DNA of 40,515 nucleotides from Paraglomus occultum (Eukaryota > Glomeromycota > Glomeromycetes > Paraglomerales > Paraglomeraceae). Position 1 is the stretch's first letter; each line of letters begins with the position of its first letter. The stretch lies in contig CAJVPJ010000142.1 in assembly GCA_910592205.1 (NCBI GenBank), positions 1-40,515 of the forward strand, read 5' to 3'. The notes beneath the pieces were generated by a model. It was not told the origin of the DNA. It did no database searches and saw nothing but the letters and a program-made list of their open reading frames with translations. Position numbers and translations under genes: made by a program. Below, piece after piece: positions 778-40,215 of this stretch.

Positions 778-1817
778 ATGTTTCGAAACATTTTCCAGGT
801 ATATAGAACTCATAATAACTCTGCATCTTATAATTGGCAATGTCTTACGTAACCAGTATACATTTGTAGACGGGATTTCTTTCCATTTTGTACAGCATTG
901 GGTAAGGGCTTTTACCACCTTATCAAGTGTAATCATCAATTCGATAATTAAATTATCGACAACACGAAAAAGCAACGCCGAGATAATGATAAAGCATAAT
1001 AACTAAGCAGTAATGTACATAAATCTATTTATACAAGAAATTTGCCCCATCAACACAGGGACATCTATCGGATTGACGAACAATACTGTTCAGCGCGCGG
1101 TCAAATTGAATGAACGAGCATTATATCAACCGAAATCCTTTTAATTATAACTTCTAATGCACAGTTCTTAAATGCCTTGCTAGGAATAAGCCGCTTCAAA
1201 TTTGGCATACCGAAACTGACTCAAAACATGAAGAGAGTCATGTTAACCGAGTGACTGATGAGGATATCCAGTCAGTGGTCATCGAACTAGCCTCGCCAAA
1301 TGTGGCAAACACGTATATAACTTGTCCTGCACAGCTCAACCGCGCACTTGGGATTAAGCTACCGATCCTCGTTCTTATAGTAAAGAATGTCAAGAAGTAC
1401 TTTACTTTCGAGGTACAAATATTGGATGATAAGGGCATCAAACGACGTTTTCGCGCTTCAAACTTTCAGGTAGAGAACAGTAAAATATTTGAACATCTGC
1501 ACTGAAAACTTACTAAGTTTGAATGATCTCTCCCTTTCTTTTTCTCCTTCTTCTTCACGAGATAGTCTGTTACAAGAGTCAAACCCTATATTTGCACTAT
1601 GCCCATGCGTTTAGATGAAGGGTGGAATCAAATTCAGTTCAACTTGGCCGATTATACCCGTAAAGCGTATAGCACTAACTACGTGGAGACTTTGCGAGTG
1701 CAGATACATGCCAATTGTAGGTTGCGACGAATATACTTTGCAGATAGAATATATGCAGAAGATGAACTACCGCCAGAGATGAAGCTCTGGTTACCAGTAG
1801 ACAGACAAGCATCATAA
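778..1817 (+). CDS. CFAP20: CFAP20 / BUG22 family cilia- and flagella-associated protein (complete, 4 exons)
   Basis: Exons 778-798, 870-901, 1184-1469 and 1566-1817 give 196 codons plus TAA; the family is about 193 residues. The N-terminus MFRNIFQ continues as [11 protein letters not shown], then NKPLQIW. The third exon carries [39 protein letters not shown] and RRFRASNFQ. The last exon carries [19 protein letters not shown] and [18 protein letters not shown]. These are the family's most conserved blocks, in order and at the expected spacing. Exon 1 is only seven codons and exon 2 only 32 nt, so a plain ORF scan misses the N-terminus. All junctions are GT-AG with matching phase. In animals and ciliates the protein binds axonemal and basal-body microtubules; non-flagellate plants also keep it, so a non-ciliary nuclear role is possible. 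Relative to human CFAP20 there are a few extra residues after PLQIW. An AATAAA at 1859-1864 could be the poly(A) signal. Confidence 0.95.
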
Positions 1818-3571: not shown

Positions 3572-5156
3572 ATGCTTAGCCTAAAGCCGAGCGTACTCTT
3601 TTCCCTCGACAAAATAGCCAGCAGAGCCATTGCAATAGCTGGGCCAGTATTCATACTTATAGCTGTCGTCTTGATTTCGTTGGCTGTGATAACGTATTAT
3701 AGCGTTGTATTCCCATATGCATTTGTTTGGGATAAGGACTATATATGGTCGAAAGTCAATTACTATCTTGGGTTGATATGGAGCATTTATTTAACAGTGT
3801 GTATTGCGTTTCATTATTACATGTCAATAACGACAAAACCTGGAGGTATTCTGATTGGAGGCACAGGAGATGTAAGCAGGAACAAAACAAGATTACTGAC
3901 ACTTAACATGTTGCCAATACTGCTATAAATTTACTTATTTTACTTTAATGTTTCCTTTAGCCAAATGATGATCCGGTACTTCATGATATCTTCGTAGAAC
4001 TGGAGGAATATCAAGAATTTCCAAAAACATGTAAAAAATGTCATCTTCCTAAACCGGAGAGAGCTCATCATTGTTCAGTATGCAAACGATGTGTGCTTCG
4101 ATTTGACCATCATTGCCCGTGGATAGCAAACTGTGTTGGACACTACAATCATAGATACTTTCTCCTATTCATGACTTATCTTACGATCGCTTGCGCCTAT
4201 TTTACTATTCTTGGATGGCAGCCGTTTTTACTGAGTTTGGAATTCGATTCCGAGGTAAGTGACGATTCGGTGCAGACATGTGATTAACCGAGTAATGACA
4301 TCATTTAATTCCAAAATGTTATAGTGGGAATGGTGGATGCCCAGACCGTATGTGGCGTTAACGTTCCTACTAGCAGTTTCTATAGGGGTGGCTTTAGGTA
4401 AGTAAGCATGGGGCAACTATAATGTATAGAAGACGGATAATAATCTGACCCGTTGGGGTGGTAATGTAAACTTTGTATTAATTTTCAATTTACATGTTTT
4501 CGCAGGAGGAATGTGCCTGTGGCATTATTATCTCGTAAGTGAATCTGAGCGTTTGTTCTCTTTTCAAGGTTTATTGTCCAACTCAAAGCGATTGTGTGTA
4601 ACAGGTGGTCAGTGCGCAAACGACAGTAGAATTCTATAATAACCGATATGCGAAGAGTGAGGCAAAACGGAGGGGAGAGGTAATATAATAAAATTAATTG
4701 AGAAAGTATGATACAATGCATAACTGACTCCATTTATCAAACGATCGAACGCAGGCATTTGTCAATCCGTATAGCTTTGGCATTGTTAATAATTTTAAGC
4801 AATTCTTTAATGTCGGCTCAAACTAGTAAGTGTCTTCGACAATACGATCAAAAGAATATTGTTGAACGTTTTATTGTTTGGGATATTCCTAACCGAATTT
4901 CTTTTTACATTTTGATTAATAGTGATTAGTAAGTATATTTAACAGAACTATGCTGAAAGATCACATACAATAACGTGCTTTTATTCAGCTGCAGTTTACC
5001 ATCTTTCTAACAAGTCTGATATTTTCTAGCCCCATATACACGATATTTCTTCCAATACCAATACCACCATCGGGTAACGGAAAAGTGTGGCAGAAGAATG
5101 CAACTCAGCGTTATTCAACAGTACAAGTTGACGAGTACTCAGAAGATGACGAATAA
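3572..5156 (+). CDS. DHHC palmitoyltransferase, ZDHHC16-like (complete, 7 exons)
   Basis: Exons 3572-3871, 3961-4254, 4325-4397, 4506-4534, 4605-4679, 4755-4825 and 5030-5156 join in phase to 322 residues. It is predicted to transfer palmitate from palmitoyl-CoA to protein cysteines at an ER/Golgi membrane. Two N-terminal membrane spans (about residues 18-45 and 70-92) come before the zinc-binding cysteine-rich domain, with [20 protein letters not shown], then the catalytic D149-H150-H151-C152 in [20 protein letters not shown]. Spans 3 and 4 follow ([15 protein letters not shown]; then exons 3-4). The TTVEF element and a late [11 protein letters not shown] element match the TTxE and PaCCT motifs of the family. 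Closest in form to human ZDHHC16, including GHYNHRYF. The start is the first in-frame ATG; the frame is open further upstream only without ATG. Confidence 0.93.
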
Positions 5157-5984: not shown

Positions 5985-6122
5985 GTTTCTCAACTAAATC
6001 GATCAAGTAAAGAGTTGCAAAAGTCGCACGCATAGACAGTCCCACAAAGTTATTGTCTCACAATTCCATTAGGTGACAATAAACCCCCCAATCACATTCT
6101 TTACTGAAACTACCCATACACC
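5985..6122. promoter_or_regulatory. Short bidirectional promoter region
   Basis: Only 138 bp separate the start codons of the minus-strand mitochondrial-type gene and the plus-strand Rai1/DXO gene, so both promoters and 5' UTRs must share this stretch or overlap the genes. No clear TATA box was identified. Confidence 0.5.
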
Positions 6123-7661
6123 ATGTCCTCTTCCGAACCTACTTCGCGTACTCGTCAAGCATCACAAATCCACCGCTTCCCGATCCTTTCACCATCACGT
6201 TACCATGGCCCGCCTACACCTTATGCTCAACCTGTCGAATTGACTTGTTTCTCGTTCGACGGTACTCGTACACTTCATCTTGACGATCGCGAACTCAAGT
6301 ACTACTATCCACCTGACCTCACATCTTGTGACCTCTCTGAAGGATATGACACTTTTATCCAACGAGACGACTCTACGCCAGATCCGATTGATGCTTTACT
6401 TGATGCATTAGTTGATTATGAAAAGGTGGTTGGAGACAAAGTTGCAAGAAAGGCGAATTTTGTGACCTGGAGGGGAATAATCACAAAAATTCTCTGCACG
6501 CCTTATAATAGGAATGAGCCATGGGTACTAGGCGCAACTTTGTGGAATGTAAGTGAAGAGAAAAGAGAAAAGGGTTTGAATTGACGCAATGTCTACAATT
6601 ACCAAACGGGATTCAATTATAGAAAATTGAGGTTCGTTTAGTCTAATTTATAAACTTTTCTTTCTTTTGGTGTGGGGGGTTTTTTGGGGGGTGGTTGACG
6701 TTGAGCAGAACACAATGTGAGTAAATATAAATTAATATATCGAATACTCATCTTTAATGATAATAACCTAACGTATTCAATTAATTCCGTAACCTTAGAT
6801 ACATGAACGAACATCTTACTTCGCGAAGAAAAGCAGAAATAGATAATGCAACACCCCGTCATAAACTCATGACATATTGGGGTTACAAATTCGAGAATCT
6901 CTGCACAGTTTCCGTGCAGCCATCAGAAATTACGTCATCTGATCACCCTGAACTTCTCTCACGAAAGTCAAGCGTAGTAAATAACAATGTCCAGTATTGC
7001 TCTGTGGCAAAAGCTGCTTTGGGAAAAAATAAAATAATTATAGGCGCAGAAGTTGATTGTTTAAGTGATGTGAAGCCTGAAAAGGGTGGGAATCCGATTG
7101 ACAAATATATTGAATTGAAGACTTCGAAAGTTATGACAAGGGATAAAGACAAGATTAACTTTGAAAAGTAAGGCAACTGATATTCTTAATAACCCATTAA
7201 ATATTTTATGGCTATTATATATTAAATTCTGTCTTCCAATTTGTAGATATAAGCTCATTAAATACTGGACCCAATCGTTTCTGATCGGTATTCCACGAAT
7301 AATAGTTGGATTCCGAGACGACAATGGATTCGTAAAGCATTTGAAAGAATATAAAACGTTAGAGATCCCGCGTATGGTCAGAGGAAAGCGGAACATGTGG
7401 GTGAGTACTGTTGCAAGACGTCTTACGATGCGATTTAAATTATTGAAAGACGCTGATTTTATACATTTATTTAAGGATGCAAACGTTTGTTTGAATTTTG
7501 CAAACAACTTTTTATCATGGCTGAGGACTGTTATAGTAGAAGATGATCCGAGAGCTAGCTATTTGATACGGTTTAAGGAGCCATTTAGGGAAATAGAAGT
7601 AATTTTTATGGGTTGTAATGGAACAGCAGCGGTAAATGAGAGGTTTTTAGGAGTGCTATGA
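6123..7661 (+). CDS. RAI1: Rai1/DXO-family decapping and pyrophosphohydrolase enzyme (complete, 5 exons incl. 8-nt micro-exon)
   Basis: Exons 6123-6548, 6709-6716, 6799-7167, 7247-7400 and 7476-7661 give 380 residues, matching the family (yeast Rai1 387, human DXO 396). These nuclear/cytoplasmic enzymes remove incomplete or non-canonical 5' caps so that 5'-3' exonucleases can degrade the RNA; Rai1 also partners Rat1. Visible active-site elements: GYKFE (E177), GAEVDC (E229, D231), YIELKTSK (E250, K252), IKYWTQSFLIGIPRIIVGFR and the late VIVEDDPRASYLIRF. The second exon is just AACACAAT, flanked by a CAG acceptor and a GTGAGT donor. Without it, exon 1 (phase 0) and exon 3 (phase 2) cannot join in frame. 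With it the protein reads WN-NTI-YMNEHL, which fits the family's WNGTIYM. The first 40 residues are Ser/Pro-rich. Confidence 0.95.
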
Positions 7662-9084: not shown

Positions 9085-11129
9085 TCATTGGTGTACATTT
9101 AAAAATAATTCATCAAACTTGGCCCCGACAGATTCGATCTCATTCACGAGATTGTCCAAATGGCATTTCTGAACCGACGGTGAATTAATTACCACTCTGA
9201 AAATTGCTGGCAATTCTTTTCCGGCTAATTTCAATGGCGCATAGTCAAACAAAAACATTCCTTTCTTGCAAATCTCGTTATGTACTGCCTTTGTGACGTT
9301 ATCCAAAACATTTCTATACACATCGTAATTATTTTCACAAAGTTCAATGGGCGAGTACCAGAAACACACTTGTAAACAAGCTGGCTCCATTAACAGTTTG
9401 AATTTACTCTTTGCTTTAATTAAAGCAGAAAGATACTTTGCCATATTAAAGGCATGTTCAATTCGTCGTTCGTATCCAGTAATCCCATAGTACTTCCATC
9501 CCAAGAATAATTTTACTGCATCCGGTCGTCTACCACATCCAACAGTACCGTCGCCCAAGTCGTAATCGTGGCCGTGGAACAAGTATCCTGCTCGGAGACT
9601 GTTGGATCTGGCAAGCGTACGGTAATCCCGCATGAGCAAAAATGAGCATTGGAGAGGCGTGCCGAGCATTTTATGTGGATTCAAAGTGAATGAATCCGCC
9701 TGAATTAATGGTACATTGATGTTAAAACAATTGTTTTCTTGACTATAACAATTAGCGTGAGCATTATACATTTAGTTGATAATTTTCTTCTAATAGTACT
9801 GTTATCATTTTTTTCACTCTCACGAATTATTTCATAGTTTACTGTAATTACCATTTCAGACCCGTCCAACAATGGTAATCTCTTCTCAGAGAATATAACG
9901 CTTCCTCCCCAAGACCCGTCGATGTGATACCACATGTTATATTTCTTTGCTATTCTGCCAATGGCTTGTAGAGGATCGAATGCTCCCTAAGTATTGAAAC
10001 ATATTGTCTCTATGAGTATCTGAACACACAGATAATATGCTTACAAGTGTATTTATGCTCAACACACAAGAACTGTAGTGCCTGCCGTAGCATTGACAAA
10101 GAAAGGAGTGTTGCCAGAATTTATTGATTGATTAATCATTCGTTCTAACCAAGAAATAAATACGACTTTTGAGATATATTTCATACATTCTTATCTCCCA
10201 AGGCAGTCATAATTAATTGACATACCTAAATCGCCTGGCGACATTCTTCCATTGTTGTCACAAGGTACTTTAATTATGTTATCGGTACCTATACCGAGAG
10301 TCATGGCTGTCTTGTCAACTGAATAGTGACCATTTTCTGAGGTGAATACAACCAAATTATTTTTAAAAGAGCTGTATCCTTGTGTTTTGATTTCTGGAAA
10401 CATAGTGTTTCGTGCCGTAATCATTGCCAGTTGATTAGAAAATGCTCCTCCCGGACATGTAACGCCACCACTTGTCTATAGGAAATGACAATTATTGCCA
10501 AGTTAATTAATAAAACTTGTTTAATAGTTGAATACAAGTTTATCATTTCTACCTCTCCCATTTTTAACATTCTACCAATACGCGCAGCAATAATGCGTTC
10601 AATTAGAGTAAATGCGGGAGACACGCGATACACGTGTGCATTCGCGTTGAGTATAGTAATCAGCATTTCCGATATAATTCCCACGGGATTGGTTCCCGCG
10701 TAGAGTTTGTCCATGAAGCAGGGATTCCAAGTATTAACGCTATATTGCATAATAGATTTTACCAACAAAATAATACCTGAAAAAATGGGACAAACCGTCA
10801 TAATCAGGTAGAAAATGGCGGTCAATGATCAGAAATAATATTAAGTATTACCATCATTGCCAATCCCTACTTCTTTCAGATCAAAATCTATTATATTCTC
10901 CAACTCGTCTGGTGTTTTAAAGTCCACCACTCGAGCATTTTCTCGTTGGCTGTCGTTAACGTCTAATATTGATATTAGCGTGTAGTAATTAAGTTGATTA
11001 GGTTAACGCGACATTATAATAGTGATGGGCGCGCGTCTTACATTCGACAATAATCTGCTTCATCTGGGAGATTAGTTCGTCAAGATCACGTGCATCAGCG
11101 GATAGATCGGAATGTGTTTGGCGGTCCAT
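9085..11129 (-). CDS. Group II PLP-dependent decarboxylase, glutamate/aspartate/cysteine-sulfinate type (complete, 7 exons)
   Basis: Exons, high to low: 11129-11042, 10962-10852, 10776-10553, 10475-10226, 10144-10068, 9986-9852, 9699-9085. They join in phase to 499 residues. The enzyme removes the alpha-carboxyl of an acidic amino acid (glutamate to GABA, aspartate to beta-alanine, or cysteine sulfinate to hypotaurine) using pyridoxal phosphate. The PLP lysine is K305 in ADSFTLNPHKMLGTPLQCS. Other family blocks are VTCPGGAFSNQ, AFTL-type TSENGHYSV, NATAGTTVLGAFDP, the aspartate of WYHIDGSWGGSV, and YDLGDGTVGCGRRPDAVKLF. The TNPVGIISEMLITILNANAH segment resembles fungal and bacterial members rather than animal GAD65/67, so the substrate cannot be fixed. 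It lies tail-to-tail with Rai1 and in tandem behind the Kar5-type gene; no shared pathway is implied. Confidence 0.93.
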
Positions 11130-11559
11130 TATATGATATCAACAGGACGTGGACGGTTTATTTTATTTCTGTATCCAATTTCAACAATTTTTTTTTAAAA
11201 AAAAAGACTAACTAAATGCGCAGACGCGAAATCAATCGCGAGCTGCACTCATATTTATAATACAATTGACTGTTTGTACAACGAAGCGACAATCGACTGC
11301 GCAAGGATTATCAAGGTGCCGAAATTTATCCGATTCGCCGTAAACCCATTTTTGGTAAGCAATACAATCAAAGCTACTGCTGATTAGATTGAAGGGCAAT
11401 TGATTTTCCATATGATAATAAAATGTTAGATGAAATAGGTTCGACCACCTCTTCGAGTCCTAACATCATTTCCGTTATTTGAATAGTATGTCCTTATTAA
11501 AGCAACACGACCGTGCCTTCGATGCAAATATGGAAATGCACTAATTGATTATATCATAA
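11130..11559. promoter_or_regulatory. Upstream region of the decarboxylase gene
   Basis: 430 bp between the decarboxylase start (11129) and the stop of the upstream Kar5-type gene (11560), both on the minus strand. It must hold the decarboxylase promoter and the Kar5 3' UTR. The only marked feature is a T-run followed directly by an A-run at about 11189-11205, a perfect AT hairpin or nucleosome-excluding tract. Confidence 0.4.
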
Positions 11560-14367
11560 TTAACACTGGGCAGAGTTTCCTCGATTGAGGGGTTGAGAGT
11601 AATAGCGCATTGGCAAACCTTGTTTCCATATCCAGATCATCACTCGTATCACTTCCTCGAGAGCATATAATACGCAGAAATAAAACGAAACTAGTCTTTT
11701 AAAATAATAACATGAATACTTGTGCCGAAATATTAGAAGAACAAGAGCCCATTTAATAGACACTTACCAAGATAAAACATCTCAATGCGATATGCCAACC
11801 CCAGTATTGTGCATGTGCAAGGCAAAGTGTAAAGTTGAAAAAAATCGCTTGATAAATTGGGATGATCAGTATCCGTTGTAAATTATATGATTATGAAATC
11901 GATACTTTTTGGGCATACTTGCGGTCGTCATCCAGGTATTGCACTTTAATAGTTTCGCAAGCATCCTGGCAGCCACAGAAACTGCTACAAGCATTCCATA
12001 GATTACTCCATAACTAGAAGTGTTTTCTGCAAAAATAAATAATTGATTAGTATTCGCATTCTAATTCGGACGTTGCTATTTTTCAGTTTTTGCTACACTT
12101 ACCATACCAATTAGCAACGCTCCATAAAGGCTTGATGAACTTCATCAAATCGACATAACTGTGCTTTGCTTCTCGTACTGCTTCGGTAAGGTCGTGAATC
12201 TCAGTATGAGACGCACGTATCAAAGAAGTATATTCACTTTGGATTGAACTTAATGTCTTTCTATATTCTAACACAAAGTTGTCATAATACGCCTGTCCGA
12301 AGAGGAAGATAAGCGGTGGTATTTAAATGTCAAGAGACGGTTCAGTAAAAAATGAAATGCTGACCAGAAACTTGTCAATGTTAGAGTTTAATTGCAATTG
12401 ACGTTCAAGCGAGAATTTTGTTGCTTTTGACATGTCGGCGAGAATCTAGAAAACAAAATTAGAGTCTGTCAATGTTGCGGGATAAAATGATAATACTGTA
12501 GATGCAAAACAGTTACCGAGTATGTTTCTTCGACGCCTTTATGATGAATTTCGAACTGGGATGCCATAAATGCCTATTTTTTTGAAAAAACGTCTATTAA
12601 TGTACCGTAAATTGCTTGTATAAAGTATTAGTATTGGACATACCATATATTCTCTCATCTTTGATTCATAGTTGTCTGTTAATTGGTTGATATGTTCGTA
12701 TGCATTTTGTACATGAGATTGAAAATACGCGATACCCTATGAAATATGATCATGTGTTAACTATTTATACATTTAGTCTTGCGCATGAAAGAAAAAACAG
12801 ACCGAGGAAAGCCTAGTTATCTGACTTTTAATGTCTCCAAAATACTGTTCACTTTTCTGGATACCAAGTTCTTGTACTTTCGAAAACTCTTCATCAACTT
12901 TCCGCATGCTGCCCATTAGGGTATCCACGACCTGAACCAAGTATTGAGTTGTCTTGAATGCAATAACCAGAATATTTAATGATTGATGGAAATACCTTTG
13001 TCAATAATGTCAATTTTCCTTGCATGTTGAGTATACTTTGGTTCGTATTGTCCTCGATATTATGAAAATTTTCTGCTATTTCCGTTTGACTTTTTAATGT
13101 ATCAGACGCTAACGCCACCGAAGCGGCTAATTTCGAATAAAGTCCCATCACAGTCTCCGACATACTAATTGTTGTATTCTTCAAAAAACGCGAAAACATC
13201 AGTAGCGCGCGCACAATTATACAAGCTAGAAATTAGGTTCAGTTTTTTACCTCGATCTTTGAGAATTTAGCAGATATCTGGTCTTGGAAAGCTTCCATAT
13301 TTTCGAGTTTATGCATCTCCTCTTTGCGCCAATTAATAAATTCCTGTAGTTGTGAACGTATCATATTGTACGTTTTTAACTGTGATATGGTAATATTTTT
13401 ATGAAGTTGCAGGAGAAGCTCTTGATGAGAAATAAAATTCAGAGGCAATGAGTTACAAAAATTATAATTTATTTGCCACTCGAACAGAGAACTTGATGCT
13501 AACCTCGCTCCATGGGAAATCGAACAGCGAAACACATCATAACTCAAAACACGAACGTTGTAAAGGTTAATACTTTTTATTTGTCTAAAAGAGGTTAACT
13601 AGCCAACAACACTCACAAACTTGTCGAAAGTATCCCGAATAGGAAGTCCACAGTTGCGCATTGTCCTGGAGAGCACTAAAAGGATATCAGCTGGCCGCTT
13701 TAGAATGAAAGCCTAAAAATCATATCCCTTACCTAATACAATCAGTAACCGTATTGTCGTCTTCACACTCTATTGGATGTTTACGCTTGGAAATCGAAAT
13801 ATCACACATAGTTAGCCTTATTGCAACTACAATAACATGTATGTTAGTAAATTTATTTGGGAAAGCGAAAAATGAAATTTTCGGTATTAGTTGTAACTAC
13901 ATCGCATTTGATCTTCAACGGGAATGTTTGGTTCTTTACATCCGTGTCGTAGAGAGTCGGCGGCGGATTTAAAGCATGCCTCGGGACTTTGTTCATATTG
14001 TTTTAGTGAACCTAAACACAAATTTGACAGTCAAGCCCGTTTATTTTATCAATGTTAAATATTTCAGTTTTGTGTTAACTAATAAACATACTAAGTCCGA
14101 GTTCAACAACACTTCGTTCTTCGGCCGATAATTCTGACAGGCCTTCCACCCAAGCTTTTCGTAAAACTTGGTTGTTAACTTAAAATAAAAAGTTAAAAAT
14201 TTTTTATTGTATATTTTCAAACACTAACATAAATCTGATTCTTCTTCGAGTTGGCCGAGATTGTTATTTGCAAATATAGAGCCCAGCATAGCCCAATGGC
14301 ATAATGATGGACCGATAAGAAAAAGTAAGACGATTAATGAAAGCGTTAGCTTGTTTGAATAAAACAT
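11560..14367 (-). CDS. KAR5: Kar5/GEX1/Brambleberry-family nuclear-fusion (karyogamy) protein (complete, 16 exons)
   Basis: Exons, high to low: 14367-14229, 14178-14092, 14011-13901, 13826-13733, 13675-13617, 13542-13504, 13420-13251, 13178-12996, 12931-12803, 12736-12644, 12573-12517, 12445-12365, 12292-12103, 12026-11919, 11847-11768, 11718-11560. All joins keep phase, giving 592 residues (Arabidopsis GEX1 593, zebrafish Brambleberry 625, yeast Kar5 504). Order: signal peptide (LTLSLIVLLFLIGPSLC); a cysteine-rich lumenal domain with C88, C100, C120, C133, C142, C167, including FAIRLTMCD, TDCISALQDNAQLWTSYSGY and MCFAVRFPMERE; a long coiled-coil region (about 175-470); then three hydrophobic spans (about 482-502, 515-540, 548-570). 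Family members sit in the nuclear envelope/ER and drive nuclear membrane fusion after gamete or cell fusion. The last two joins (71- and 49-nt introns) are the least certain; the N-terminal domain is clear. Confidence 0.9.
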
Positions 14368-15515: not shown

Positions 15516-17107
15516 ATGTCAAGGTATGGATTCGAATTCTGTTGTCTGATTTATACATATATCCCATCAACCCAATTATGTTTCTTATAGTACCAACCAA
15601 GAATCTCTCCCGACAATTTACAAATGGGCATCAACGGATGGCGAATTCAGGAGAGCACCAACTAGCTTCCGTAACGTTATTGAAAGAAATGCCGATTCAG
15701 GAGCTCAATTTGTAGCAGAGAAGTAAATACGACACAATGTTTTACATCAAAAAGATAGGAATCGAGTATGAAATTCATATTTAATTGCTTCATTAGGGAT
15801 AGATATCATCTGTATATCAGCTGGGCTTGTCCATGGGTATGTCATTGTAATTGGTCAATCATCCCGTTAAACACGCATATACATTAAACATTAATACGTG
15901 AATTTCATCTATTTTTCCTTCATGTCATTATTACCAAAACCTTCAAATTCTCACAGGCTCATAGAACAGTAATTGTCCGCGCCCTCAAGGGCTTGGAGGA
16001 TGTAATTGGTCTCAGTGTAGTAGATCATCACTTGGGACCAAAAGGGTGGAAGTTTTCCACTCCCGAGGAATGTCCGGGTGCTATCCCGGATACAGTTAAC
16101 AACAAGGCGTATATTTCAGAGCTTTATTACATGGCTAGTCCCGAATATAAAGGACGGTTCACGGTACCTGTACTATGGGACAAGAAACTTGGAACTATTG
16201 GTAAGTTGTAGATACAGACAAGGTTAAACTGTCACGTTTATTGACTTGTACTAAGAACAGTCGACGGTTTGGATCATCAGTGAATAATGAATCATCCGAG
16301 ATCATTCGCATGTTCAACGCGACTTTCGACGACTTTGTACCCGAACACGCGAAAAACTTGACTTTTTATCCAAAACACCTAAAATCTGAAATTGATAATA
16401 TCAATGAGTGGGTTTACGATACGGTGAATAACGGCGTATACAAATCTGGATTTGCTACTACTCAAGAAGCGTGTAAGTTTACGTAATATCTAATCGCATG
16501 ACCTTTCACCCAGACGCTGACTTTGACACTTATTATCAGACGAGAAGAACGTAGTACCGTTGTTCGAATCTTTAGATAGATTGGAAAAGATACTTTCGGA
16601 GCATGATTTCTTAGTTGGGGATACTTTCACCGAAGCAGACATTAGACTCTGGACTACTATCGTCAGGTGATTGTTAAGGATCATTGTGTATTCAAGAATT
16701 TACGCACAAATTGACATTTGAATTGCGTTCTCTCGACAGATTCGACCCTGTATATCATGGGCACTTCAAGTGTAACGCGAAATCGATTGAAAAAGACTAT
16801 CCTAATATTCTCAGATGGGCCAGGCGTATCTATCAAATGCCAAAGGGTATGTTTCTTCTTGCTAACGTATACTGATCAGAGAGTAGCTCTAAAATGTCTC
16901 GTTTTACAAATAGTTGCACAGACTGTGAACATGCACCATATTAAGTACCATTACTACGGAAGCCATAAAAACATTAACCCCACGGGTATCGTTCCTATCG
17001 GTAACGGGCCAGGTAAAAACCTCGACATTGGGTGTTGCCAATCGTAGTTTCGCTCAATACGACTGACTTTTTTTTTTTGTTTCAATTCAGATCTCTCCAT
17101 ACTTTAA
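15516..17107 (+). CDS. Xi-class glutathione transferase / glutathionyl-hydroquinone reductase (Ecm4/Gto type; complete, 9 exons)
   Basis: Exons 15516-15523, 15591-15722, 15797-15836, 15957-16200, 16281-16472, 16540-16666, 16740-16846, 16914-17012 and 17091-17107 give 321 residues. The enzyme reduces glutathionyl-hydroquinones and mixed disulfides with glutathione in the cytosol, via cysteine. The catalytic C58 lies in YISWACPWAHRTVIVRALKG. Other hallmarks are VPVLWDKKLGTIVNNESSEI, KSGFATTQEAYEKNVVPLFE, GDTFTEADIRLWTTIVRFDP and KYHYYGSHKNINPTGIVPIG. The first coding exon is only 8 nt (ATG TCA AG). For the 3' end I prefer splicing at 17012/17091 (ending DLSIL), which fits the family's short tail and a strong pyrimidine tract. 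The unspliced alternative ends at TAG 17045-17047 with about eight more residues. It converges on adenosine kinase with 189 bp between stops. Confidence 0.93.
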
Positions 17108-17296: not shown

Positions 17297-18867
<1,571 letters not shown>

Positions 18868-20501: not shown

Positions 20502-22445
20502 CTATATAGAAGGTGGAAAGAAGATTTCTTTCAAATTTCCCCAGAATCCCTTGTCATATATGTTCTGGACTTCTTTAAGACTTTGAACTTGCGTTCCATC
20601 ATAATCATTCTTCCCCCTTGGGCCACCCAACCTTCGCTTCCGTTCTTCTGCTGTTTCATTCCAATAAAGCTTTATTGTCTTTGGTATATTAGGGTTTTTG
20701 CTTAGTTTGGCATCATCTACATCGAACGCCTTCTCGTGCACGTAAAGCTCTCCCATTTGGATTATTTCATCAAGGTCCTCCCACTTGAATGCTTCATTTG
20801 CTGTCATGCCACTTTTGATCAAACTCAATTGATAACCTAGGAAAGCAAGAATCACGAAACCAACCAAGAATGCGAAAATGCCTAACGCACCCAAGAGTCT
20901 GTATTGGTGGATTAAATACTGTAACATTGGAGTCATAAATGTTATTAAGCATTATCGTAAGCGAGTGGGTTTGAATATTAACGGTTGATTTGCTTACCAA
21001 CACGGCTTGATAAGTTGTTATTGGCACTTTTTTGCCTGTTTGAATGTTAGACACATAAGCGGACATCAAGTTCATCTGCTTTGCAATACCCATAAATGCG
21101 TAGAAAATCAGGTATGTTCCATAGAAACATATTTGAATTGTCGCGTAAAGAAATAGTAGAAAGTACCGATAATTCTTTAAACCAACACAATTATTAATCC
21201 ATGCGCCTATATAAGGGTTACGCGAGTTAACATATAGTAACGATATTATTCGGAAAGGACTTGAAATTACTAAATATTGACATACAATGGTGATCGCATT
21301 TTGCAACGCAAACGTTGCAGAGCGAACAATGCTTGGAGCGAGCAGGTCTACAAAAAATAATAAAGGCGTTAGAACAATGCCAACAACGATGTCTATGATG
21401 CTGATGCTTATTCATACTTTTGTATTAGACAAGTTCTACATTTTTTGGGTTCGAACAGCACAAAATCATACGGAAATGCCTTGCAAGCCTTTACCGCGTT
21501 CTCTTGCGTGACTCTTCCTGGGTCGCTCCGAGTTGCAATGAACATCGTCGCATATGTAAATACGATTACAAGGTTCGAAGTGTACCTAAACAATAAAATT
21601 GTCAACTGTCAGTAAATTATGCATTACCAAACAATGTATGCTATGGTTAATTGCAAATGACGTTGCAATTGAATAGTTTGATTAATTAATTAACTAGCGA
21701 TTTCATAGCATTCACTCTCGGACGTGTACTTACAAGTGAATCCTAGAAAGATATGGTCCGGGTATATGCGGCCATACAGACACATAAAATGCATAGACAG
21801 CACCAGTTATTAGAAAAAGATACACCATCTTATTAAAAGATACGGTAAGTATTGCATAACGTGAATTCAGTAATGATAGTCAGACTGTTTGTTCCCAAAG
21901 ACATGCAGCAATGTCGGGTCTCTATAATAAGCTTAGCGTAAATTGACATTTCCGAAATCACACCTTCACACACCTGTAATACGGGGTTTTTCTCTTCCAT
22001 AAAGTATCGATATACACCATCAAATTTACCAGACAAACGAGTGCCACATATACGCCTATTTACACTCCTATAATCCCAGAATACAGACATATTAGTAAAG
22101 AAATTACACACTCTTTAGTATCGAGAAAACCAAGAGTTCACATACGCTATTCCGTTTATTAAAGTGACTGTCAGGAAGCGATGTATCATGCCAATCGGCC
22201 CATTTCTGTGAACAAAGAACACATCAGTGACGACAGGATCAATGTGACGGCGAATGAATACACAAGTCCAAACCTGAATTTCTGCGAAGGACCCATCAAA
22301 AGTACAAACACAATAAAACTAAATAGGACAAAATATGCCGCCATAGCAATAAAGGGATCCTGCAAACGTATGTAGTCATTACGCACAATATTAGACACTT
22401 TTCGTAATTCGGAGACTTTCCATCGTTTTACTTGAGACTTACCAT
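20502..22445 (-). CDS. SWF1: DHHC palmitoyltransferase, Swf1-like (complete, 9 exons)
   Basis: Exons, high to low: 22445-22443, 22359-22274, 22205-22146, 22067-21974, 21828-21734, 21585-21418, 21347-21286, 21206-20998, 20918-20502; 397 residues. Swf1 palmitoylates SNAREs and related single-span proteins near their membrane anchor. Visible: N-terminal spans (FVLFSFIVFVLLM; MVYLFLITGAVYAFYVSVW), the cysteine-rich block CRTCLIQKPARSKHCSLCNV, catalytic D187-H188-H189-C190 in [20 protein letters not shown], and later spans (FLLFLYATIQICFYGTYLIF; LGALGIFAFLVGFVILAFLG). SGMTANEAFKW matches the family's TTxNE-type motif. The C-terminus VQNIYDKGFWGNLKEIFFP mirrors the NIYDKG...NL ending of yeast Swf1, which decides the subfamily. 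The coding part of exon 1 is just the ATG, followed directly by GTAAGT; this start fits the alignment but needs transcript support. Confidence 0.92.
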
Positions 22446-38598: not shown

Positions 38599-40215
38599 TC
38601 ATCTTAGTAAATGTTCATTTTGATATGCAAACTGATCATAGCTAATTATTTTTACACCGGTTGAAGTTTTTTCAATTTTCAAGTCACGTTTCATAGTATT
38701 TAACTTTTCTTCTGAATATAAACAAACCCAATACCAATAAAGAGTTGTGTCCCTCGCCTACAACAGAGTTAAAATTAGAACAATTGAATGCGTCATATAA
38801 GTCGATAAATAAATAATCATGCTTACATAAGCATCACGACTGATATCAAAGTCTATAATTATGTCATCTTCGGACGAAACGTTAACCACGCATGGTAAAA
38901 TGTATTCAGCATAGTCAATGTTAAGTTTAATGTCCGTCTCATATCGTATTTCTTCAGTTGATGTTTTTATTGTTGTCTACAAATCGATATGTTTATACTT
39001 ATTTATTATTATACAATCAAGACTACAATAAACAACATTTATTTTGAATACTTACCTCCATCGTAATTGTCATTGACTTATCCCCTCCATTCCCCAACAA
39101 AATGCCGAGTTTGTATTTATTTGGAGGTACTTTGAATATTGGTATTGTTACCTAATATATAATAGTTTATTAGTAATATTCACAACGTATACAAACGTTG
39201 ATAAATAATAATGATTATACACTTACTTTATTAGGTCCATAAAACCACAAATATCCATATTCATGGTAACTATTAAATGATAGATGTTAGTAGTGACACA
39301 AAATAACAAAATAGTTATTGTAAATTACTTACTAGCCACATCCACTGATATCATCAACATGACTTTCATATGCGAAATGTGCTTTCAAATGACCTAATAA
39401 TAATAGTAATTAGTATGCATAATAATATATAATTATGTAATCATTGCATTGCCAACCCCTTACTTTTGTGCATGTAATAAACTTTTTCAAAAAACGCGTT
39501 TGTACGCGTATAATTATAGTAAGTATTGTTATGCATATTATGCCAAAATGCAGCAATGTTGTACCATCTGGTGTAATCATCTGTTCCATACTGATGATTA
39601 CACAGTGATTGCCATTGATTGATGTCATTTAATTTATCCATTGCTTCATAAGGACAACTATCCACAAGAATCTTAAACCATTCTACATCAAAGTACTCAA
39701 GTTTGTTTACATATGCATTAATAACATTGAATGCTTTTTTTTGCTTGCCTTGATGCCTAATATGTCTAAGATCTTGTCTAGCTCCCCCTTTATTTCCTAA
39801 CCCTAAATGTACCAATAAACTTAAATACCAAGCATCATAATAAACTTTGTTTACTTCAATTGCTGTCTCAATATCAAGCAGTGCTTTTCCAAAATTTTTC
39901 ATATCTAATTTGATCTTTGCTCTATTACACAATGCTTGATAATCTGTGAGATCTGCTTCTAATATTTGTGTATAGATGTTTAAAGCCTTTTCCAACTCAT
40001 TACTATTATATGCATTTTTAGCCTTTTTAAGCAACTTGTCAATATTTGGTGCTGTTAATGATTTCCAAATTGACCTCCAGGTAGATTCAGAACCATATTT
40101 CTTGTTCTGCTTTTCCCTTTTTGCTTCTTAAGCTCATTACAGTCATCAACTATATTTGAATTTGCATTAGTGCTGCTGCCAGTATTAACAGTGTCAATAT
40201 CTTGATAATCAGTGT
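38599..40215 (-). CDS. TPR-repeat protein with unassigned C-terminal domain (3' part, 7 exons visible; 5' end not found)
   Basis: Exons, high to low: 40215-40151, 40106-39464, 39393-39333, 39269-39227, 39151-39056, 38976-38827, 38757-38599. All keep phase and give 404 residues to the TGA. The 643-nt exon holds TPR-type helices (AKNAYNSNELEKALNIYTQI; YQALCNRAKIKLDMKNFGKA; KVYYDAWYLSLLVHLGLGNK), implying protein binding. The later exons form a beta-rich tail (YHEYGYLWFYGPNKVTIPIF; YKLGILLGNGGDKSMTITME) of no family known to me. The first two exons shown are the least sure: their 47-nt intron is very short, and without it the frame breaks. The start codon and upstream exons would lie right of 40215, where a mariner-type element now sits, so that element may lie in an intron or have cut the gene. 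Confidence 0.7.

What the first reader, a model, noticed from the sequence alone, without database searches (positions are those of the whole stretch)
11560..14367. Complete Kar5/GEX1/Brambleberry karyogamy gene
Sixteen exons join without a phase error into a 592-residue protein with signal peptide, six-cysteine lumenal domain (TSYSGY, MCFAVRFPMERE), coiled coil and C-terminal membrane spans. The family is known for nuclear-envelope fusion after mating. If the organism is an arbuscular-mycorrhizal fungus or another lineage without observed sex, an intact karyogamy gene is evidence for cryptic sex or for nuclear fusion in a multinucleate mycelium. No ORF longer than about 110 codons exists here, so automated calls are likely to miss or fragment it.
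Basis: partly seen in the sequence, partly recalled or inferred. Interest (0 to 1): 0.78.

Follow-up and report, generated by a model that had tools for sequence, protein, structure and literature searches.

The report
Intact nuclear-fusion gene in mycorrhizal fungus
A root-symbiotic fungus, from a group whose sex life is disputed, carries a complete copy of the gene that yeast, plants and animals use to fuse two nuclei; relatives have the gene too, and the public version of this copy lacks its key part.

Summary
Confirmed, with corrections. The window is a 40,515-bp contig of Paraglomus occultum, an arbuscular mycorrhizal fungus. On the minus strand, 16 exons (14367..11549) join in phase into a 580-residue Kar5/GEX1/Brambleberry protein with a hydrophobic N-terminus, six cysteines, TSYSGYFR, a helical coil and C-terminal hydrophobic spans. 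Pfam Tht1 scores 48.7 bits against a cut-off of 21. The public model (454 aa) lacks the signal peptide, the SYSGY/Cys6 core and the last two exons, and has no Tht1 hit.

Relatives occur in 16 other Glomeromycotina species, some already named KAR5 in databases. So this is an ordinary member of a known family, useful as a karyogamy-specific marker where sex is disputed; meiosis genes were already reported for this species (PMC9453076, passage). Two leads: a 39-nt exon carrying the sixth cysteine is missing from three other public models, and both Funneliformis models have lost SYSGY. Transcription, dN/dS and function could not be tested.

The parts
14229..14367 (-). Exon 1: start codon and N-terminal hydrophobic, signal-peptide-like segment (aa 1-46)
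   Evidence: in-frame stop five codons upstream of ATG 14367; hydropathy peak aa 5-32; not covered by P. brasilianum P0001
14092..14154 (-). Exon 2 (aa 47-67)
   Evidence: acceptor as in P0002 and in line with P0004
13901..14011 (-). Exon 3: Cys 80 and 92 of the cysteine-rich domain
13733..13826 (-). Exon 4: Cys 112, 125, 134
13617..13675 (-). Exon 5: QLWTSYSGYFRQV core motif
13504..13542 (-). Exon 6: 39-nt in-frame micro-exon (MMCFAVRFPMERE) with Cys 159, the sixth conserved cysteine; joining the exons without it gives a stop after aa 155
   Evidence: matched by P0001 and three other relatives
13251..13420 (-). Exon 7: end of conserved domain, start of coil
12996..13178 (-). Exon 8: helical coil
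12803..12931 (-). Exon 9: helical coil
12644..12736 (-). Exon 10: helical coil
12517..12573 (-). Exon 11: helical coil
12365..12445 (-). Exon 12: helical coil
12103..12292 (-). Exon 13: end of the helical coil
11919..12026 (-). Exon 14: hydrophobic segment aa 475-496
11768..11847 (-). Exon 15: hydrophobic, start of segment aa 523-545
11549..11695 (-).
   Evidence: matches the C-terminus of P. brasilianum P0001

Best explanation
This is the Kar5/GEX1/Brambleberry (Pfam Tht1) gene of Paraglomus occultum. The protein is inserted into the ER and nuclear envelope. Its cysteine-rich domain and long coil lie in the lumen between outer and inner nuclear membranes, anchored by C-terminal membrane spans. 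Most likely it couples the two membranes and promotes fusion of outer, then inner, membranes when two haploid nuclei meet, that is, karyogamy in a rare sexual or parasexual phase. Shown here: gene structure, family membership, conserved cysteines and motif, relatives across the subphylum. Inferred: topology, envelope location, fusion role, and that the fungus performs karyogamy.
For: Tht1 hit 48.7 bits, cut-off 21. Six cysteines and TSYSGYFR aligned with relatives; in yeast all Kar5 domains and the conserved cysteines were essential for nuclear fusion (PMC4291462, passages). Relatives in 16 other Glomeromycotina species. The cysteine-rich domain is 50-52% identical to Ambispora, Cetraspora and Diversispora epigaea while the coil is 18-21%. 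SUN-domain segments on five contigs of the assembly; the SUN protein Mps3 is needed to place Kar5 in yeast (PMC10609895, passages). A HOP2-family (TBPIP) segment over cut-off and HORMA segments on two contigs are also there.
Against: No RNA evidence for transcription or splicing. No DNA of P. brasilianum was reachable, so no dN/dS; between the two Paraglomus the cysteine-rich domain (121 of 136) is no better kept than the coil (228 of 255), so recent domain-specific constraint is not shown. In Glomerales the domain is only 37-39% identical to this one, no more than in Sorochytrium and Mortierella (39-40%). P. occultum is reported as homokaryotic (PMC9453076, passage). In R. irregularis co-inoculation karyogamy genes were not upregulated (PMC7490403, passage). 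HAP2, SPO11 (two families) and MND1 gave no match here, but the same kind of search with Tht1 also missed this gene, so those misses say little. The structure model is weak overall (mean pLDDT 65.2, pTM 0.35; blocks of 77-87 over residues 21-170) and had no PDB match at E<=0.001.
Confidence: 0.8

Rival explanations
1. The gene is kept for a non-sexual job, such as fusing or reshaping nuclear or ER membranes in a multinucleate mycelium, and says nothing about mating.
For: Zebrafish Brambleberry also fuses karyomeres in early embryos, and roles of Arabidopsis GEX1 in gametophyte and early embryo development have been suggested (PMC10609895 and PMC7586128, passages). AM fungi hold hundreds of nuclei in one cytoplasm (PMC6281316, start of abstract). 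Karyogamy genes were not upregulated in one R. irregularis study (PMC7490403, passage).
Against: The yeast, alga, malaria parasite and plant members named in the passages seen act or are expressed in the sexual phase.
Confidence: 0.2
2. The gene is a recently silenced relic, intact by chance since sex was lost.
For: No RNA data; dN/dS not measured; in both Funneliformis models the conserved motif is already changed, so loss may happen within AM fungi.
Against: A 16-exon frame without stop here and a matching protein predicted in P. brasilianum; core motif kept in 15 of 18 Glomeromycotina rows.
Confidence: 0.06
3. The exons are a false join, or the gene is an ATG17-like protein, as the precomputed Pfam label of the public model suggests.
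For: PF04108 is the domain listed for the public model P0002 and scores weakly on the full model (23.3 bits, below its cut-off of 43).
Against: Tht1 is over its cut-off; 60 shuffles gave no match; the P. brasilianum protein, predicted on another genome, joins the same sequence.
Confidence: 0.01

Closest known systems
Kar5/Tht1 family of fungi (Pfam PF04163; S. cerevisiae Kar5, S. pombe Tht1)
   Same: N-terminal signal-like segment, six-cysteine domain, coil, C-terminal hydrophobic spans; over the family's cut-off
   Different: 16 exons; no direct alignment with the yeast proteins was made; number and place of spans only roughly predicted
Paraglomus brasilianum P0001 (540 aa, partial) and other Glomeromycotina proteins (e.g. 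Ambispora P0003, Cetraspora P0004, Rhizophagus clarus P0022 'nuclear fusion protein')
   Same: Same family; from 121 of 136 (P. brasilianum) to 52 of 132 (R. clarus) identical residues in the conserved domain
   Different: Coil 16-21% and C-terminal region 7-25% identical in the five other AMF species compared
GEX1 of plants and protists; Brambleberry of zebrafish
   Same: Cysteine-rich domain (six cysteines in land plants) and overall layout, as described in PMC7586128 and PMC10609895 (passages)
   Different: Plant GEX1 has three spans, Kar5 and Bmb two; no sequence comparison with them was made here

Membership tests
Kar5/GEX1/Brambleberry (Tht1, PF04163) | Score over the Pfam Tht1 cut-off | tested here: met
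   48.7 bits, cut-off 21, residues 78-426
Kar5/GEX1/Brambleberry (Tht1, PF04163) | Six conserved cysteines in the N-terminal lumenal domain | tested here: met
   C80, 92, 112, 125, 134, 159 align with the relatives; said to be conserved in every ortholog in PMC4291462 (passage)
Kar5/GEX1/Brambleberry (Tht1, PF04163) | N-terminal signal peptide | tested here: inconclusive
   Hydrophobic peak aa 5-32 after the first ATG following an in-frame stop; no signal-peptide program was available, cleavage not predicted
Kar5/GEX1/Brambleberry (Tht1, PF04163) | One or two coiled coils | tested here: inconclusive
   Heptad-like stretches at 217-244, 280-307, 324-351 by a home-made score without a null; P. 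brasilianum model has helices at 104-267 and 272-433 at low confidence
Kar5/GEX1/Brambleberry (Tht1, PF04163) | Two or three C-terminal membrane spans | tested here: met
   Hydropathy peaks over 1.6 at aa 475-496 and 523-545
Kar5/GEX1/Brambleberry (Tht1, PF04163) | Nuclear-envelope location and requirement for karyogamy | not testable with these tools
   Needs cell biology
ATG17-like (PF04108) | Score over the Pfam cut-off | tested here: not met
   23.3 bits, cut-off 43

The most novel reading that the evidence does not exclude
AM fungi, including the homokaryotic Paraglomus, regularly fuse nuclei with Kar5, and fusion competence is gated by splicing: a 39-nt in-frame exon, old enough to be shared by Paraglomus, Geosiphon and Gigaspora, carries the sixth conserved cysteine, and leaving it out gives a fusion-dead protein (Gigaspora, Geosiphon) or a premature stop (P. 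occultum).
Probability: 0.08. Interest if true: 0.72.

Novelty: new member of a known kind. Interest (0 to 1): 0.42.

Why it matters
Whether AM fungi have sex is a long-running question. Evidence so far includes meiosis genes, MAT-like loci and claimed recombination between nuclei (PMC6281316, passages; that this last claim was disputed is recalled). Kar5 is closer to nuclear fusion itself than meiosis genes are. If transcripts and dN/dS show that it is used, karyogamy becomes directly testable by stage-specific expression and tagging. Broken public models also mean that domain counts undercount it: of the 18 AMF rows found, 11 carry the Tht1 label and 7 do not (precomputed labels; the 7 misses and 2 of the 11 hits were rescanned with the same result).

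Tried and rejected
First splice model (571 aa): dropped after comparison with P. brasilianum; exon 2 acceptor and exon 16 changed. The first Pfam and homologue searches used that first version.

Homologue searches: one search gave 16 rows and (profile) 3 rows, in each of which only about 7990 candidates sharing most words were scored, with residues 60-240 of Cetraspora P0004, gave 29 rows of 408 candidates. R. irregularis did not appear in any of the three; I do not read that as absence (length limits, 90% clustering, broken models).

Solved structures: 54 matches at E<=0.1, all in the coil part of the profile and none named as a Kar5 relative. Foldseek: 0 matches at E<=0.001, 91 at E<=10. No fold-based relative.

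Family searches of the assembly: Tht1 missed the gene that is here, so no match for HAP2, SPO11 (two families) and MND1 is uninformative; SPO22 gave two sub-cut-off matches. Found: TBPIP/HOP2, SUN on five contigs, HORMA on two contigs, one match with stops inside (HOP1, MAD2 and REV7 not told apart).

Shared neighbour: the RPS19-like piece fused to the Entrophospora models has no match in the window at E<=1.

Literature: ten searches of the open PMC set. 'Kar5' with 'arbuscular mycorrhizal' gave 2 papers, by title on karrikins and on reactive oxygen; 'KAR5' with 'Rhizophagus' gave 0; 'nuclear fusion protein' with 'Glomeromycotina' gave 0. Of papers I saw passages of six (PMC9453076, PMC4291462, PMC10609895, PMC6281316, PMC7490403, PMC7586128) and only listings of the rest. 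Subscription papers and supplements (e.g. Table S2 of PMC9453076) were not seen, so a Kar5 mention there is possible.

Full report
What was checked. The window is contig C142 of a 32.3-Mb, 1408-contig assembly. A protein search returned a public protein, '3386_t:CDS [Paraglomus occultum]' (P0002), whose contig is 40,515 bp long, exactly the window's length. It is 86% identical to my first version over 86% of it, and outside its mis-predicted stretches it reads the same as the window in the alignment.

Gene model. Reading the minus strand in three frames and joining exons at GT-AG sites gave 16 exons. P. brasilianum P0001 ends with DMETRFVNAL...SSPVLIMI, and the window encodes DMETRFANALLLSTPQSRKLCPVLIMI in another frame of the same stretch, so the last exon is 11695-11549. 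P0002 and Cetraspora also favour a later acceptor for exon 2, though P0001 reads differently just there. The final model has 580 residues, exons from 14367 to 11549, and 15 introns of 57-83 nt. P0001 matches this gene in 14 places, the only ones found in the assembly; exons 1 and 6 are not among them, but exon 6 is matched by P0001 and three other relatives in a finer search. With six relatives as queries the 3.1-kb region gave 26 matches; 60 shuffles gave none. No RNA was available.

What it is. Pfam Tht1 matches residues 78-426 with 48.7 bits against a cut-off of 21. Six cysteines and TSYSGYFR align with the relatives. In yeast Kar5 all domains and the conserved cysteines were essential for nuclear fusion, and the layout is shared by members from plants, protists and animals (PMC4291462 and PMC10609895, passages). 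Hydropathy shows an N-terminal peak (aa 5-32) and C-terminal peaks (475-496, 523-545). A model of P. brasilianum built on 31 sequences shows helices only, with fair confidence over residues 21-170 (blocks of 77-87) and poor confidence elsewhere (mean pLDDT 65.2); it had no PDB match at E<=0.001.

Spread. Three protein searches gave 33 rows, 18 of them from 17 Glomeromycotina species: P. occultum, P. brasilianum, Ambispora leptoticha, Geosiphon pyriformis, Cetraspora pellucida, Dentiscutata erythropus, Gigaspora rosea (2 rows) and G. margarita, Diversispora eburnea and D. epigaea, Acaulospora morrowiae, Entrophospora candida and E. sp. SA101, Rhizophagus clarus, Glomus cerebriforme, Funneliformis geosporum and F. 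caledonium. The other 15 rows come from Mortierella and its relatives, Spinellus, Sorochytrium and Coelomomyces (grouping recalled). Names such as 'Karyogamy protein 5', 'Nuclear fusion protein KAR5' or 'nuclear fusion protein' already stand on some AMF rows. In 18 Glomeromycotina rows (my model plus 17 public ones, the broken P0002 left out) all six cysteines are present in 13 and T(S/T)YSGY(F/Y)R in 15. Exceptions: P0007, P0008, P0017 and P0021 lack stretches of the domain; the Acaulospora model lacks the motif and two cysteines; both Funneliformis rows keep the cysteines but read (T/V)TYDRYHN. A tree of 24 of the 34 rows, 10 redundant or fragmentary ones dropped, joins the two Paraglomus at 100/100. 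All Glomeromycotina rows lie on one side with Spinellus, support 87/87; the root is a midpoint for drawing, and the program warns of long branches, Spinellus beside Paraglomus among them. I read this as consistent with vertical inheritance, not as proof of it.

Constraint. The cysteine-rich domain is 50-52% identical to Ambispora, Cetraspora and D. epigaea and the coil 18-21%. Against this: R. clarus and F. geosporum have only 37-39% in the domain, no more than Sorochytrium and Mortierella (39-40%). Between the two Paraglomus both parts are 89%, so the recent comparison does not single out the domain; the SYSGY-to-Cys6 segment is 27 of 28. Without P. brasilianum DNA, dN/dS could not be computed.

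The public annotation. P0002 (454 aa) begins at Met 27 of my model, goes out of frame after Cys 134, rejoins in exon 7 and reads past the end of exon 14 into what I take to be intron 14. It loses the SYSGY and Cys6 core and the Tht1 hit; its precomputed label is ATG17-like. Exon 6 is 39 nt, a multiple of three, with phase-1 junctions on both sides. In public models of G. margarita (P0008), G. rosea (P0021) and Geosiphon (P0017) the stretch from SGYFR to NIT is 18 residues, against 31 in G. rosea P0007 and Cetraspora, a difference of exactly 13. This is either the same prediction error three times or real skipping; in P. occultum skipping gives a stop after residue 155. That the exon borders are the same in those species is inferred from proteins; I saw no DNA of them.

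How it most likely works. By analogy with Kar5: lumenal domain and coil between the two nuclear membranes, anchored near the C-terminus, brought to the contact site by a SUN protein, promoting outer then inner membrane fusion. SUN-domain segments are on five contigs of this assembly. Location and function are inferred.

Meaning. P. [quoted passage not shown] Karyogamy and recombination between nuclei have been claimed in some Rhizophagus dikaryons (PMC6281316, passages), while karyogamy genes were not upregulated in one co-inoculation study (PMC7490403, passage). An intact Kar5 adds a karyogamy-specific piece that is consistent with sex or parasex, but presence alone does not show the act. In ten searches of the open PMC set, listed under tried and rejected, no paper turned up that names Kar5 in these fungi.

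Verdict. Real and correctly identified, with minor errors in the gene model; a new member of a known family, of moderate interest for the question of sex in AM fungi.

Noticed in passing
window 13504-13542 (-); P0008, P0017, P0021: Exon 6 (39 nt, sixth conserved cysteine) corresponds to 13 residues missing from public models of Gigaspora margarita, G. rosea and Geosiphon: shared prediction error or real exon skipping.
   Followed up: partly
P0025, P0027: Both Funneliformis Kar5 models keep all six cysteines but have lost the SYSGYFR motif (TYDRYHN) and have no Tht1 hit; possible relaxed or changed function in that genus.
   Followed up: partly
P0019, P0020: Entrophospora Kar5 models are fused to a ribosomal protein S19 domain (PF00203), probably a gene-model fusion; no match to that piece in this window.
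   Followed up: partly
window 1158-1787 (+): CFA20-domain (CFAP20/Bug22-like) gene, the only match found in the assembly; the family is best known from cilia (recalled), here in a fungus without flagella (recalled).
   Followed up: partly
window 9085-10828 (-), 6108-7661 (+), 3961-4287 (+), 20794-21411 (-), 17297-17668 (-), 39441-40127 (-): Neighbours by Pfam: pyridoxal-dependent decarboxylase, RAI1-like nuclease, two DHHC palmitoyltransferase segments, a pfkB-family kinase (adenosine kinase by eye), TPR-like repeats (below Pfam cut-offs); ordinary genes.
   Followed up: no
window 15888-16211 (+): Weak glutathione S-transferase N-terminal match, below cut-off.
   Followed up: no
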